From: Thermoleophilum album
GTDB taxonomy: Bacteria; Actinomycetota; Thermoleophilia; Solirubrobacterales; Thermoleophilaceae
Length of the DNA stretch: 64,000 nt
Direction of reading: 5' to 3'
Assembly (NCBI RefSeq): GCF_900108055.1
Contig: NZ_FNWJ01000001.1
Location: forward strand, 1 to 64,000
Shown here in pieces: positions 28,204 to 37,012 of this stretch. A program made the translations under genes and the position numbers. How positions within the stretch are numbered: position 1 is the first letter of the stretch; each line of letters starts with the position of its first letter. The notes beneath the pieces were generated by a model. That model did no database searches. It had not been told where the DNA came from and saw only the letters and a program-made list of their open reading frames with translations.

Positions 28204-30382
<2,179 letters not shown>

Positions 30383-30386
<4 letters not shown>

Positions 30387-32891: not shown

Positions 32892-34316
32892 CTAGGCGGC
32901 GAGCGCGATCGCCAATCGTTGGCTGGAGATCTCGCCGACTCCGCCAAGGAGCCCGAGGATGCGGGCGACGTACGCGCGCGTCTCGACAAACGGCGGGACG
33001 CCACCGTATCGATCTACTGCGGCGGGCCCGGCGTTGTAGGCAGCGAGCGCGAGTGCCAGCTTGCCGCCGTAGCGGTCCAAGAGGTCGCGCATCAAGTGGG
33101 CTTGCGCGTCGATCGCCTGCCAGGGGTCGAAGGGATCGCGCAAGCCGTAGGCGCGGGCGGTTGCCGGCATGAATTGGGCGATGCCCAGCGCGCCGGCGGT
33201 ACTGCGCGCGAAGGGGTTGAATCCTGACTCGGCGTAGAGCTGTGCGGCGAGCAGCGCAGAAGACACGTTCCAGCGCTGGGCGGCCCGAGCGATCGGTGCT
33301 TCGAGGTGCGCAGGGACGAAGGCCGGCAGGCCACTCGTGATCCGCGAGTGATCGCCGCCGGGCGGCTCCCAGGAGCCGCGCTCGTACTGGGCGGGGTGCT
33401 CGCGGTCGCGGGGGTTCGGGCCAAAGCCGAAGTGCCAGGCCTCCCACGCGTAACGCTTGATGAAACCGAAACGACGGGCGTTGCGTGCTAGCCAGGGCCA
33501 GGCCGCGGGTGGTCCGAGATCGAGCTCGGTGCCGTAGCGATGGAGGCTCGTGCCGGGCGGTGCCACCCACCGTGGGTTCGGGTTGGCTGCATACAGCCGT
33601 GCCTGCTCCGCGTCGGAGCGGTAGGCACTGGTGATCGCAAGCGCCAGGTGTGCCTCGCGCCAGGCGGCCGCCGCCATCCGGTCGAAGGCTCGCGCTACTT
33701 CAGGGCGCATGCCTTTTCCCTGGCGATAGGCGAGGGGTCCACCGTAGCCACCCCCAGCCGCCACCGCGTCTGCGGCGACGGTCGCGTCGCCCGCCGTCAC
33801 GAGCTCGGCGACGGCGCGCACCTCGGCGCGGAGCCGCGGGTCGCCGGCGCGCTTGCGGGCAATCGGCGTCTCCACGCTGTCAGCGACGGCCACGGTCACC
33901 TGGGTGGTGGCGAAACCCGGGCCGAAGGCGACACGCGCCCGCTGCCAGCGCACACCGTTGGCAGCAAGCGTTTTGCGAGCTGCTTGCGCGGCGAGCGCAC
34001 GGTATTCGGGCTCGTCGAGGTGCGCGGGATTCGGCCTCCCGTCGGCGAGTGTCGGTGGCGTGAAGAGGCGCTGGTAGTTCGCCGCCATCGCGCGGGCCGC
34101 ACTGAGCGCAGCGAGATCGGTGGCCCTTTGCAAACGCCCCTTCCCGAGCAGTGCTGAAGCGAACGCCGAGAAGGCGACGGTGAGACCGGCCACGACCACG
34201 ACTAGCCCGAGCGTGAAGGGGAGCGCTTGCGCGCGCTCGCCAGCGAAGCCCGGGAGCGGGCGCGTCGAACGTGCGCCCTCGCGGCGCCGGTACGCACGCG
34301 AGAGGTCTACGCCCAT
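32892..34316 (-). CDS. TadG-like / VanY M15 peptidase / lytic transglycosylase fusion
   Basis: A 474-residue three-part protein. Residues about 25-80 hold a TadE/TadG-like pilin-type anchor: short basic N-terminus, QALPF, a hydrophobic helix, and 'LQRATDLAALSAARAMA'. Residues about 195-315 are an M15 (VanY/D,D-carboxypeptidase) domain with metal motif SLHRYGTELDLG and EAWHFGF. Residues about 345-460 form a GH23 soluble lytic transglycosylase domain: catalytic Glu in YAESGFNPFA, ALGIAQFMPATA, and AYNAGPAAVDRYGG. Both peptidoglycan domains keep their catalytic residues. Start ATG 34316 is my choice; two ATGs lie within 30 bases upstream. It lies next to two TadE-like genes and a MinD/CpaE-like gene, so cell-wall opening for pilus assembly is a fair hypothesis. 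Confidence 0.85.
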   Translation of the reverse strand: MGVDLSRAYRRREGARSTRPLPGFAGERAQALPFTLGLVVVVAGLTVAFSAFASALLGKGRLQRATDLAALSAARAMAANYQRLFTPPTLADGRPNPAHLDEPEYRALAAQAARKTLAANGVRWQRARVAFGPGFATTQVTVAVADSVETPIARKRAGDPRLRAEVRAVAELVTAGDATVAADAVAAGGGYGGPLAYRQGKGMRPEVARAFDRMAAAAWREAHLALAITSAYRSDAEQARLYAANPNPRWVAPPGTSLHRYGTELDLGPPAAWPWLARNARRFGFIKRYAWEAWHFGFGPNPRDREHPAQYERGSWEPPGGDHSRITSGLPAFVPAHLEAPIARAAQRWNVSSALLAAQLYAESGFNPFARSTAGALGIAQFMPATARAYGLRDPFDPWQAIDAQAHLMRDLLDRYGGKLALALAAYNAGPAAVDRYGGVPPFVETRAYVARILGLLGGVGEISSQRLAIALAA

Positions 34317-34482
34317 GCGGCGACCGTTACGCATGCCCATGCGCCGACGGTGACGCGGAGGAGCGCACGTGCGCGTTGCGGGCGTTGCAATCGTGCGACG
34401 AAGATCCTCTGTAACCCGCGCGTCCCCCTCTGAAACCCGCGCGGTCCCTTGTCTCGACCGCGCCACGCACGGTCCGCCCCAC

Positions 34483-34594
34483 GCCGTTTGGCAGTTACGC
34501 CGTCTGGCGGCTACGCGGTCTGGCGGCTACGCCGTCTGGCGGCTACGCGGTCTGGCCGCTACGCGCTCTGGCGGCCACGGCGTCGCGCCACTAC
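34483..34594. repeat. Seven 16-bp tandem units at a gene 3' end
   Basis: Units of exactly 16 bp start at 34483, 34499, 34515, 34531, 34547, 34563 and 34579. Reverse-strand consensus is CCGCCAGACCGCGTAG; the last two read-out units are diverged. Four of the units carry TAG and another TAA in the minus-strand direction, and since 16 is not a multiple of three, successive stops fall in different frames. Each unit can also form GCCG-loop-CGGC. The CDS end (CTGCCAGCCCGCTCGCGTAG) resembles one unit. Confidence 0.85.
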
Positions 34595-35607
34595 GCGAGC
34601 GGGCTGGCAGCTCCACAGTAGGCACGCCGAGACGCGCGGACGGTCTCGAAGGCGAGCGACCAGACCCTGTTCGCTGGTGCGGCCAACGCACCCGCCGTGA
34701 GCCCGGCGCGAGCGAGGCGCGCCGCGAGCGGTGCGTGCGGCAACTGCACGCACTCGGCCCTGCCGCCGACCGCGGCGGCGGCGTCACAAGCTGGCCGCTG
34801 GCGAGTGGTGGGAGCACCGCGGATCGCAACCGCGACGATCGCCGCGCCCTGCTCGGTAGGTGCCGAAGAGACGGTCAGCATTAGTTCGAACAGTGCGGGG
34901 TGGGTGTCTGCGCCCGCGACCACGACTAACGCGTCGAGCGCGCCGAGCACGGGATCGTCGAGCGCGCGCCGGCCGAGGTCAGCGACCAGCACCGAAACCC
35001 CGAGGTACGGAGCGATGGTGCGCAGACGATCGAGAGAGGACGCGAGCTCCTGTGGGCGCAATGCGCGATCCGCTGCGGACTGCGGAACCGCGAGCAAACA
35101 AAGACGACCGCAGCTGACCGCCGCGATCCCCGCGGCGCCGAGCCGCCGCGCCACCGTTCGCGCGCAACCGAGCGCCGGACGCAGGCCGCGCTGCGCATCG
35201 CAGCGAGGAGGTCGGACGTCCGCATCGGCGGCCGCGGATTCGGGCAGGTCGCGCGCGCTGGCGAGCGAAACGACGGGGGTCGGGCCGAAGCCGGGGCGCC
35301 TCGCCTGGGCGACCAGCGCCAACACGCGCGCAAGCGTAGTCGCACCCGCCCGCGGCCGCAGGCTCAGCACTCCCAACGCGAGCGCACGAGAACTGGGCGT
35401 TGTCCGATCGGCGTACGATCGCTCGCCCTGCTCGCTGGCTACGAGCTCCCCGAAGGCAGCACACCTCTGCGCCCTTAGCGGTGCTTCCCGCGCACGTCGC
35501 AGCGCCCGCGGGCGGCCGTGATTGGTCGCGCGCTCGTCGAGCGTGACGCGCTCGAAGAGGAAGTCGTCGAGCGCCCGTGCCACAGCAGCCAAACGACTCA
35601 TCGGCAC
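34591..35607 (-). CDS. Degenerate CpaE/MinD-like protein of the Tad-type cluster
   Basis: A 338-residue protein with no firm family. Residues about 77-100 (LGVLSLRPRAGATTLARVLALV) resemble a deviant Walker A of ParA/CpaE proteins, but the signature lysine is missing; a Walker B-like VSVLVADLG follows near 208 and ALDALVVVAGAD near 225. Many residues are Arg/Ala. Position beside TadE-like genes suggests a CpaE/TadZ-like localisation factor that no longer binds ATP. GTG 35607 or ATG 35601 are both possible starts. The stop at 34591 is followed by the seven-unit 16-bp array. Confidence 0.5.
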   Translation of the reverse strand: MPMSRLAAVARALDDFLFERVTLDERATNHGRPRALRRAREAPLRAQRCAAFGELVASEQGERSYADRTTPSSRALALGVLSLRPRAGATTLARVLALVAQARRPGFGPTPVVSLASARDLPESAAADADVRPPRCDAQRGLRPALGCARTVARRLGAAGIAAVSCGRLCLLAVPQSAADRALRPQELASSLDRLRTIAPYLGVSVLVADLGRRALDDPVLGALDALVVVAGADTHPALFELMLTVSSAPTEQGAAIVAVAIRGAPTTRQRPACDAAAAVGGRAECVQLPHAPLAARLARAGLTAGALAAPANRVWSLAFETVRASRRAYCGAASPLA

Positions 35608-35619
35608 CGCCAGCTTCGG

Positions 35620-35970
35620 TCAGGGCTCGGCGACCGCGGCGCGTGCTTCGACGCGCAAAGCACGCTCGGAGATCCCGGGCACGAGCGACCGTGGCCTTAG
35701 CGCGACGACGATCTCGCGCTCGCCGACGGCCAGAGACAGCCGCTGACGCTGGGCGGGTGTCAGGGATTCGCGCACCGCTCGCACGGGATCGCCCCCCGCG
35801 ACCAGCGCCAACGCGCCCGCTTCTGCGGCCGCCGCGGCGACCGCATGCGCTCGCCAGACCCAGAAAGCCTGCAAGGACGCGAGGCCGAGCACCACCAACA
35901 ACAGCGCACCAGCGAGCGCCTCGATCGTCGCCTGGGCCCGTGAGCCGGTCAGTAGCCGGTCGCCGCTCAT
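35620..35970 (-). CDS. TadE-like pseudopilin
   Basis: A 116-residue protein with a typical Tad-pilus pseudopilin N-terminus: a short basic leader, then GSRAQATIEALAGALLLVVLGLASLQAFW, a single N-terminal helix preceded by a Glu (E at +5-type position). The outer part (about 55-116) is a small beta-rich domain. TadE-type proteins are cut by the TadV peptidase and help assemble Flp pili; none of the Tad motor genes is in the window. The ATG is in an ATGA overlap with the upstream TadE-like gene. Confidence 0.7.
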   Translation of the reverse strand: MSGDRLLTGSRAQATIEALAGALLLVVLGLASLQAFWVWRAHAVAAAAAEAGALALVAGGDPVRAVRESLTPAQRQRLSLAVGEREIVVALRPRSLVPGISERALRVEARAAVAEP

Positions 35971-36320
35971 CGGGTTCGCCTGGCGAACGCTGGCGGTGCT
36001 TGTCGGCCGAGCGCTGCGCGACCGAACAGATTGACCTTTGCTGCCCCCCAAAAGACGCGCGCCACCACCCGCGTGCGCACGGTGCCCTCGTTGGTGCGCA
36101 CCTCGAGCCCGCCCCGCAGGGAGGTCGGCAGCGCCGAGCGCGCGGCCACGAACGGGTCGTCGCCGACGGCGTGTGCCCGCGCAGCCACCCGCGCAGCGTT
36201 CTGGGCGAGCGTCGCAGCGTTACCTATTGCTGCCAACTGCCACGAGCCGCCAGCCACCACCAAAAGCAGCGCGACCGCGGCGAGCAACTCGATCGAGGCC
36301 TGCCCATGGTTTCGGCGCAC
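35967..36320 (-). CDS. TadE-like pseudopilin
   Basis: A 117-residue protein. GTG at 36320 gives VRRNHGQASIELLAAVALLLVV: basic leader, then the A-S-I-E-L-L motif that defines TadE-like pseudopilins, and one hydrophobic helix. The remaining about 75 residues include an extracellular domain (ARAHAVGDDPFVAARSALP). The frame is open upstream to 36482 through the 29-bp repeats, but that extension is not typical of the family. It is the first gene of the Tad-like cluster and is likely cotranscribed with the next. Confidence 0.7.
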   Translation of the reverse strand: MRRNHGQASIELLAAVALLLVVAGGSWQLAAIGNAATLAQNAARVAARAHAVGDDPFVAARSALPTSLRGGLEVRTNEGTVRTRVVARVFWGAAKVNLFGRAALGRQAPPAFARRTR

Positions 36321-36445: not shown

Positions 36446-36506
36446 CTAGCCACGCCGCCCCGCGCTCGCGGCCACTAGCCACGCCGCCCCGCGCTCGCGG
36501 CCACTA
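36446..36506. repeat. Exact 29-bp tandem duplication at a gene end
   Basis: Two identical 29-mers occupy 36446-36474 and 36475-36503, beginning CTAGCCACGCCGCCCCGCG. A third CTA at 36504-36506 is the stop codon of the following minus-strand gene, so every unit boundary carries a TAG when read on the minus strand. Period 29 is not a multiple of three. No mismatch between the copies implies recent origin or gene conversion. Confidence 0.9.
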
Positions 36507-36860
36507 ACTCAGCGTGCGGTAGCGCGTCCAAACCCACACCAGGCCGTAACAGGACCCGCCCAGCAAGGCGAGCCACAAGAGCAGCCCACCGCCACCGAGA
36601 CCGAGCAGACGCGACGTCGCGGCGATCGTCCATGCCGCAAGACCGAGCGACCCGTACAGCACCAACCGCTGGCGTGTCGGCAGGGACTCGATCTCCACGC
36701 GATGACGTCGCCACAGCCGGATGGCAGCGACCGCCAACGCCCCCAGGAAGGCAAGCGTGAGCGCGGCTCCCACCAGTTGCAGAAAGCTCCCGCCCGCTGG
36801 CGCGAGCGCTAGCACCAGCGCGAGCAACGCCAGCAGCGCGAAGTTTCCGGCTCGCCGCAT
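36504..36860 (-). CDS. Small integral membrane protein
   Basis: A 118-residue protein with four predicted helices (about 7-25, 31-48, 66-82, 88-108) and short loops; no catalytic motif. It resembles small unnamed actinobacterial membrane proteins. ATG start at 36860, 3' end within the 29-bp duplication. It stands between uppP and the Tad-like genes in the same direction. The role is unknown. Confidence 0.6.
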   Translation of the reverse strand: MRRAGNFALLALLALVLALAPAGGSFLQLVGAALTLAFLGALAVAAIRLWRRHRVEIESLPTRQRLVLYGSLGLAAWTIAATSRLLGLGGGGLLLWLALLGGSCYGLVWVWTRYRTLS

Positions 36861-36929
36861 GCGACTGCAGACTAGCCGCCGGTGTCCGGTGCTCCACGCC
36901 GTAAACCCCCTCGGGCGCGCGGCGTCGTA

Positions 36930-37012
36930 GGAGAGCAGACCCGCGGCGGCCGTTTCAGGCGCCACACCCGCGGCGGCCGCTTCAGCTTCAGGAGATCAGA
37001 CCGGCGGTGGCC
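36930..37012. repeat. Copies of the uppP 3' end downstream of its stop
   Basis: GGAGA-CAGACC-GCGG-GGCC is present at 36991-37012 (uppP codons) and again at 36930-36951 with four mismatches. A 20-bp middle element ACCCGCGGCGGCCG(T/C)TTCAG occurs at 36939 and 36966 (27 bp apart). TCA (TGA on the minus strand) appears at 36988, 36982 and 36955, all in one frame. Confidence 0.75.

What the first reader, a model, noticed from the sequence alone, without database searches (positions are those of the whole stretch)
32892..34316. Pilin-type anchor fused to two peptidoglycan hydrolases
One protein joins a TadG-like helix, an M15 D,D-carboxypeptidase/VanY domain and a GH23 lytic transglycosylase domain, all with catalytic residues. 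It stands with TadE-like genes. I know of no described fusion in this order. It may open the wall for pilus assembly, and could be self-cleaving by the TadV-type peptidase.
Basis: partly seen in the sequence, partly recalled or inferred. Interest (0 to 1): 0.65.

Follow-up and report, generated by a model that had tools for sequence, protein, structure and literature searches.

The report
Tad-pilus tip protein with wall-cutting enzymes
An actinobacterium and most of its relatives carry a protein that looks like the first (tip) piece of a Tad pilus welded to two enzymes that cut the cell wall, which may explain how this kind of pilus gets out through the wall, a step for which no enzyme has been reported so far.

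Summary
The fusion is real: one 474-aa ORF (32892-34316, minus strand) with a TadG-type pilin helix, an M15B (VanY/LdcB-like) zinc peptidase and a GH23 lytic transglycosylase, catalytic residues intact. It is no assembly error: the same protein, in the same place near uvrC, occurs in about two thirds of sampled genomes of the order (Solirubrobacterales, by a match to Conexibacter arvalis) and in a second family of the class; it was not found outside the class in the genomes sampled. The enzyme parts are under strong purifying selection. Neighbours are TadE, a TadF-like pilin and a degenerate MinD-fold (TadZ-like) protein, which in one family is fused in frame to the enzyme. The genome has no other TadE/F/G; tadABC, a flp candidate and the only prepilin peptidase lie elsewhere. 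The protein has three published signs of a filament-initiating tip pilin: largest, hydrophobic at +5, last in the cluster. Best explanation: the tip subunit of a split Tad system that opens the wall as the pilus starts. A 2025 paper says no such enzyme is known for Tad pili. 'Self-cleaving' is not supported. Enzyme activity and localisation are inferred, not shown.

The parts
32892..34316 (-). TadG-like minor pilin fused to M15B peptidase and GH23 lytic transglycosylase (474 aa)
   Evidence: Pfam; structure; conservation
34089..34229 (-). Tad (PF13400) N-terminal helix of the fusion, with conserved (G/A)|Q site and hydrophobic residue at +5
33429..33713 (-). M15B (VanY-like) domain, residues 202-296; motifs SLHRYGTELD and WEAWH
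33000..33293 (-). GH23 (SLT) domain, residues 342-439; motif ESGFNPFARSTAGALGIAQFMPATA ... AYNAG
34591..35607 (-). TadZ-like protein: MinD/ParA fold with degenerate P-loop (no lysine)
   Evidence: homologue model pLDDT 88 and Foldseek MinD/ParA/FlhG hits; alignment A2; homologues fused in frame to the enzyme in family f3
35620..35970 (-). TadF-like minor pilin, RA|QATIE (Glu at +5); 4-bp overlap with TadE if it starts at this ATG
35967..36320 (-). TadE-like minor pilin, HG|QASIE (Glu at +5); likely GTG start at 36320
   Evidence: NCBIfam TadE_Rv3655c E 6e-4 (below cut-off)
36504..36965 (-). small membrane protein at the head of the cluster
   Evidence: synteny; no Pfam family

Best explanation
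The protein is the TadG-type minor pilin of a Tad (type IVc) pilus system whose genes are split over the chromosome. With the TadE and TadF neighbours it would form the three-subunit tip that starts pilus assembly. Its helix sits in the membrane with the N-terminus inside. Outside, the M15B peptidase would trim or cut peptide stems (D,D- or L,D-specific; not decided) and the GH23 domain would cut glycan strands, so that a local gap opens where the pilus starts and, if the tip travels with the filament, along its way out. The TadZ-like protein (in some genera fused to its N-terminus, so on the cytoplasmic side) would place or license the tip at the TadABC motor, so that cutting is confined to the assembly site. 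Shown: sequence, domain content, conservation, selection, synteny, the fused TadZ-like domain, the make-up of the Tad genes. Inferred: enzyme activity, membership of the tip, use for pilus passage.
For: Domains and catalytic residues; dN/dS about 0.04-0.18 for the enzyme parts in six pairs of relatives, dS near saturation in some. Conserved cluster membrane protein-TadE-TadF-TadZlike-fusion near uvrC over the order and in part in the second family f10. It is the only PF13400 protein over cut-off, and the cluster holds the only clear TadE/F proteins, in the own genome; the tadABC triads of twelve fusion-bearing genomes have no such TadE/F/G beside them; a Flp pilin candidate with G|QGTVEY lies at C2:52 kb. 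Association of the fusion with TadA in 158 genomes of the order: 92 of 108 against 21 of 50, Fisher p 8.5e-8, not corrected for ancestry; genus g8 lacks both. TadZ-like domain fused in frame in five genera. [quoted passage not shown] In Myxococcus TadE/F/G-like pilins form the tip and the TadG-like one carries a variable head (PMC12075869). In a monoderm, hydrolase LytF promotes pilus extrusion (PMC13192262). G034 carries an M23 peptidase gene in the same cluster.
Against: No experiment. The Tad motor is unlinked, so the functional tie rests on co-occurrence and on being the only tip set. In 16 fusion-bearing genomes no TadA was found (some of them over 95% complete). The structure model is of medium quality (pLDDT 72) and no complex was modelled. 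The flp candidate is weak by family score (Pfam E 0.006-0.013). It is not known whether such large heads could pass with the filament.
Confidence: 0.6

Rival explanations
1. A housekeeping wall hydrolase for growth or division that merely borrowed a Tad-type helix as membrane anchor; its TadE/F neighbours are relics or anchor partners.
For: Single copy, vertically inherited, next to housekeeping genes uppP, uvrC, gap, pgk; tadABC unlinked and not found in 16 genomes that have the fusion.
Against: Kept with TadE, TadF and the TadZ-like gene; missing together with TadA in genus g8; absent from whole genera (g43-g45) and from 111 genomes of other families of the class, so dispensable for growth; tip-pilin signature at +5.
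Confidence: 0.2
2. An armed pilus tip used against other cells: contact-dependent wall damage on prey or rivals, as with the Kil tips of Myxococcus.
For: Kil tips carry variable heads on the TadG-like subunit and kill by contact; lytic heads would suit.
Against: No immunity-like gene is constant beside it; one conserved copy per genome without diversification, with strong purifying selection.
Confidence: 0.1
3. The Tad system here is a DNA-uptake pilus and the hydrolase serves transformation, as tad genes do in Micrococcus luteus and LytF does in Streptococcus sanguinis.
For: Actinobacterial tad genes are needed for transformation in M. luteus, where tadV is also unlinked (PMC4322843); LytF.
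Against: Competence genes were not examined here; this is a use of the pilus and does not exclude the best explanation.
Confidence: 0.07
4. Artefact: three genes joined by a sequencing or assembly error.
For: None.
Against: Same fusion in about a hundred independent assemblies, some single-contig.
Confidence: 0.01

Closest known systems
TadG / KilN (TadG-like tip minor pilins of Tad and Kil pili)
   Same: PF13400-type helix, pilin-like head, extra C-terminal domains, encoded with TadE and TadF
   Different: known heads are von Willebrand A-like (own knowledge) or of unknown function (KilN, PMC12075869); here two peptidoglycan hydrolases
GspK-family minor pseudopilins of type II secretion
   Same: largest minor pilin, hydrophobic at +5, last gene of the cluster, proposed tip
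   Different: different machine; GspK has no enzyme domain
Specialised lytic transglycosylases of secretion, pilus and flagellar systems (VirB1-like, BB0259-like)
   Same: GH23 fold and role of opening the wall for a machine
   Different: those are separate proteins, not fused to a filament subunit; here also an M15 peptidase
Rv3654c-Rv3660c tad-like locus of Mycobacterium (TadE_Rv3655c, Ssd)
   Same: actinobacterial TadE-like proteins and a TadZ/Ssd-like MinD-fold protein
   Different: there the tad genes are together and Rv3654c is small and has no hydrolase (own knowledge)
LytF of Streptococcus sanguinis
   Same: peptidoglycan hydrolase that helps a pilus leave a monoderm cell (PMC13192262)
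   Different: a separate hydrolase, not fused to a pilin; other pilus (Com)

Membership tests
TadG-like (PF13400) minor pilins | PF13400 match over gathering cut-off | tested here: met
   25.5 bits against 22.3; 30.7 in the genome search
TadG-like (PF13400) minor pilins | encoded with TadE and TadF | tested here: met
TadG-like (PF13400) minor pilins | Tad motor (TadA/B/C) and Flp in the same genome | tested here: met
   tadABC; Flp candidate (weak family score)
TadG-like (PF13400) minor pilins | part of the pilus or needed for it | not testable with these tools
   needs genetics or microscopy
Filament-initiating (GspK-type) tip pilins | hydrophobic residue at +5, the other minor pilins with Glu5 | tested here: met
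   31/31 without Glu5; Glu invariant in TadE/F
Filament-initiating (GspK-type) tip pilins | largest minor pilin, at the 3' end of the cluster | tested here: met
Filament-initiating (GspK-type) tip pilins | leader removed by prepilin peptidase | not testable with these tools
   conserved (G/A)|Q site; one A24 peptidase in the genome
M15B (VanY/LdcB) peptidases | SxHxxGxxxD and ExWH zinc and catalytic residues | tested here: met
M15B (VanY/LdcB) peptidases | D,D- or L,D-carboxypeptidase activity | not testable with these tools
   Foldseek favours BaLdcB/VanY-like, which does not settle specificity
GH23 lytic transglycosylases | catalytic Glu in ESxF..., GxxQ and AYNxG motifs and fold | tested here: met
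   (Z 18.2, rmsd 1.9 over 136 residues)
TadZ/CpaE (for the neighbour 34591-35607) | MinD/ParA fold | tested here: met
   model of a homologue
TadZ/CpaE (for the neighbour 34591-35607) | sequence match to a TadZ/ParA family model | tested here: not met
   no Pfam or NCBIfam hit; hence 'TadZ-like' by fold and place, not filed as TadZ

The most novel reading that the evidence does not exclude
The first subunit of a pilus is itself a two-enzyme wall cutter: the tip bores its own hole through the peptidoglycan, positioned by a cytoplasmic MinD-like domain of the same complex, and stays on the outer end of the pilus. Temperate elements repeatedly use the codons of its zinc-binding histidine as their attachment site, so that integration removes the transglycosylase half and may switch the pilus off.
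Probability: 0.3. Interest if true: 0.85.

Novelty: new variant of a known kind. Interest (0 to 1): 0.7.

Why it matters
How Tad pili cross the cell wall is open: a 2025 structural paper notes that, unlike other appendages, no peptidoglycan hydrolase or lytic transglycosylase has been reported with the Tad pilus (PMC12307814). Here a tip-type pilin carries both kinds of cutting enzyme, in a conserved family with cultured members such as Conexibacter arvalis, so the question becomes directly testable.

Tried and rejected
Artefact or genes fused by frameshift: rejected. Phage or plasmid origin: no phage or plasmid record covers 80% of the protein; the best hits are to the SLT part alone; the one long viral hit (L216) looks like host sequence at the edge of a prophage. 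Prepilin-type self-cleavage: rejected for lack of any such protease part. A TadV in the window: the own-genome search gave a single A24 peptidase, at C2:302 kb. Flp by family models: PF04964 none, PF14029 only weak; found instead by motif. A second Tad-linked SLT+M15 protein (L204) looked like a parallel, but its homologue in the own genome (L004) shows no tad genes in the 3 kb held, so I treat the linkage as chance. No paper in the library on Tad pili in Thermoleophilia. Pilin folds did not appear in the fold search of the whole model, which is dominated by the SLT domain; that is no evidence against a pilin head.

Full report
What is there. The minus-strand ORF 32892-34316 encodes 474 aa with three Pfam domains over their cut-offs: Tad PF13400, VanY PF02557 and SLT PF01464. 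The order is membrane helix, M15B peptidase, GH23 transglycosylase. The AlphaFold model (mean pLDDT 72) shows a 60-residue N-terminal helix with a small alpha/beta head up to about residue 175, as in pilins, then the two enzymes. Foldseek and VIA-align recover Slt/MltF/MltE for the SLT part (Z 18.2, 1.9 A over 136 residues) and Foldseek recovers BaLdcB/VanY-like for the M15 part.

Is it real and old? A search of 61 relatives gave full-length matches in most of them. With a profile, 300 genomes of the class showed it in four families of the same order and in one more family, f10. One member, G060, is Conexibacter arvalis DSM 23288 (contig of 259,901 bases, same place), so the order is Solirubrobacterales. 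By my tally about 108 of 158 genomes of the order have it (fragments at contig edges counted); in f10, 21 of 31 have a match that spans both enzyme domains; 0 of 111 genomes of the other families have it. In 396 genomes drawn from the phylum, listed matches outside the class cover the SLT part only. All catalytic residues are invariant in 31 sequences, and dN/dS of the enzyme parts is low (0.04-0.18). So both enzymes appear to be kept active by selection.

Neighbours. Over the order the gene stands in a nearly fixed block: (uppP) - small membrane protein - TadE - TadF - TadZ-like - fusion - (MaoC) - uvrC - rapZ - gap - pgk. TadE and TadF have the prepilin-type site with invariant Glu at +5. 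In the window TadE and TadF overlap by 4 bases if TadF starts at its ATG. The third gene is unknown to Pfam and NCBIfam. Its homologues share a motif like GLxxGCGxTTVARAL, a P-loop without its lysine, and the model of one (pLDDT 88) matches ParA, MinD and FlhG, the fold of TadZ/CpaE. In five genera of family f3 (G038, G044, G057, G047, G041) this domain is in the same ORF as the fusion, upstream of its helix; G047 is a single-contig genome. That is strong evidence that the two work together and that the N-terminus is on the cytoplasmic side. In G034 an M23 peptidase gene lies between the two.

The rest of the Tad system. In the own genome tadA, tadB and tadC form a triad at C2:726-729 kb without other tad genes. 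The only PF13400 protein over cut-off is the fusion and the only clear TadE/F are its neighbours. The only A24 peptidase is at C2:302 kb, near what look like type IVa pilus genes. A small protein at C2:52 kb has ...SERG|QGTVEYVALILLVALVMAGVV..., the Flp processing site G/XXXXEY. In the other fusion-bearing genomes looked at, tadABC triads likewise lack such TadE/F/G. tadV unlinked from tad loci is usual in actinobacteria (PMC4322843). Fusion and TadA go together in the order (92 of 108 against 21 of 50; Fisher p 8.5e-8; not corrected for ancestry), and most of the fusion-less genomes with TadA (genera g43, g45) match a TadA of lower similarity.

How it most likely works. [quoted passage not shown] The fusion has all three. 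In Myxococcus TadE-, TadF- and TadG-like pilins form a three-subunit tip, with the C-terminal head of the TadG-like subunit outermost (PMC12075869). Putting these together, the fusion should be the outermost subunit of a Tad tip, with an M15 and a GH23 head facing the wall. A Tad pilus of a monoderm must cross thick peptidoglycan. A hydrolase that aids pilus extrusion is known in Streptococcus (PMC13192262), and PMC12307814 states that none is known for Tad pili. I give 0.6 to 'Tad tip or tip-associated hydrolase that opens the wall for the pilus', and less to a plain anchored housekeeping hydrolase (0.2) or a weapon (0.1).

Membership. It is a member of the TadG-like (PF13400) group and of GH23 and M15B by sequence. 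It meets the sequence signs of a GspK-type first subunit. The neighbour is TadZ-like by fold and place only.

Side finding. In three cases the gene is cut at the same codons, those of W-H-Y in the M15 motif: a 10.8-kb element with a large serine recombinase in G216, a prophage-like element with a serine recombinase N-terminus at the junction in G276, and a 59-kb viral contig. The gene is thus probably an attachment site of temperate elements, and integration separates the SLT half. This resembles serine-integrase phages in Listeria comK (own knowledge), which also affect a pilus-related system.

Noticed in passing
L178:3952 and 14687; L179:8566-8600 with L180:6355; L216:800-815: Three insertions (two with serine recombinase genes at or near the junction) split the fusion gene at the same codons (W-H-Y of the M15 motif): a recurrent attachment site of temperate elements inside a pilus gene.
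   Followed up: partly
L019, L020, L025, L172, L174: In family f3 the TadZ-like MinD-fold domain is fused in frame to the N-terminus of the TadG-M15-GH23 protein.
   Followed up: yes
L064:10698-11513 (minus): M23 peptidase gene with a FlgD-like Ig domain inserted in the tip cluster of G034, a third wall hydrolase.
   Followed up: partly
L049, L051, L059: In family f4 a GGDEF (c-di-GMP synthase-like) gene lies between the small membrane protein and TadE, hinting at c-di-GMP control.
   Followed up: no
L190:1423-1692 (own genome C2:52 kb): Flp-type prepilin candidate with G|QGTVEY, far from the other tad genes; missed or only weakly hit by Flp family models.
   Followed up: partly
window 34479-34597: Tandem array, period 16/48 bases, in the gap between the TadZ-like gene and the fusion gene, reaching the 3' end of the former.
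   Followed up: no
L004 and L204:4061-5893 (minus): Another secreted-looking protein with SLT followed by an M15-like domain (reverse order) occurs in the own genome; in G277 it lies beside a second tad locus.
   Followed up: partly
window 29310-30386 (minus): RapZ-like protein with an insert of [11 protein letters not shown]-type repeats that at least some relatives lack.
   Followed up: no
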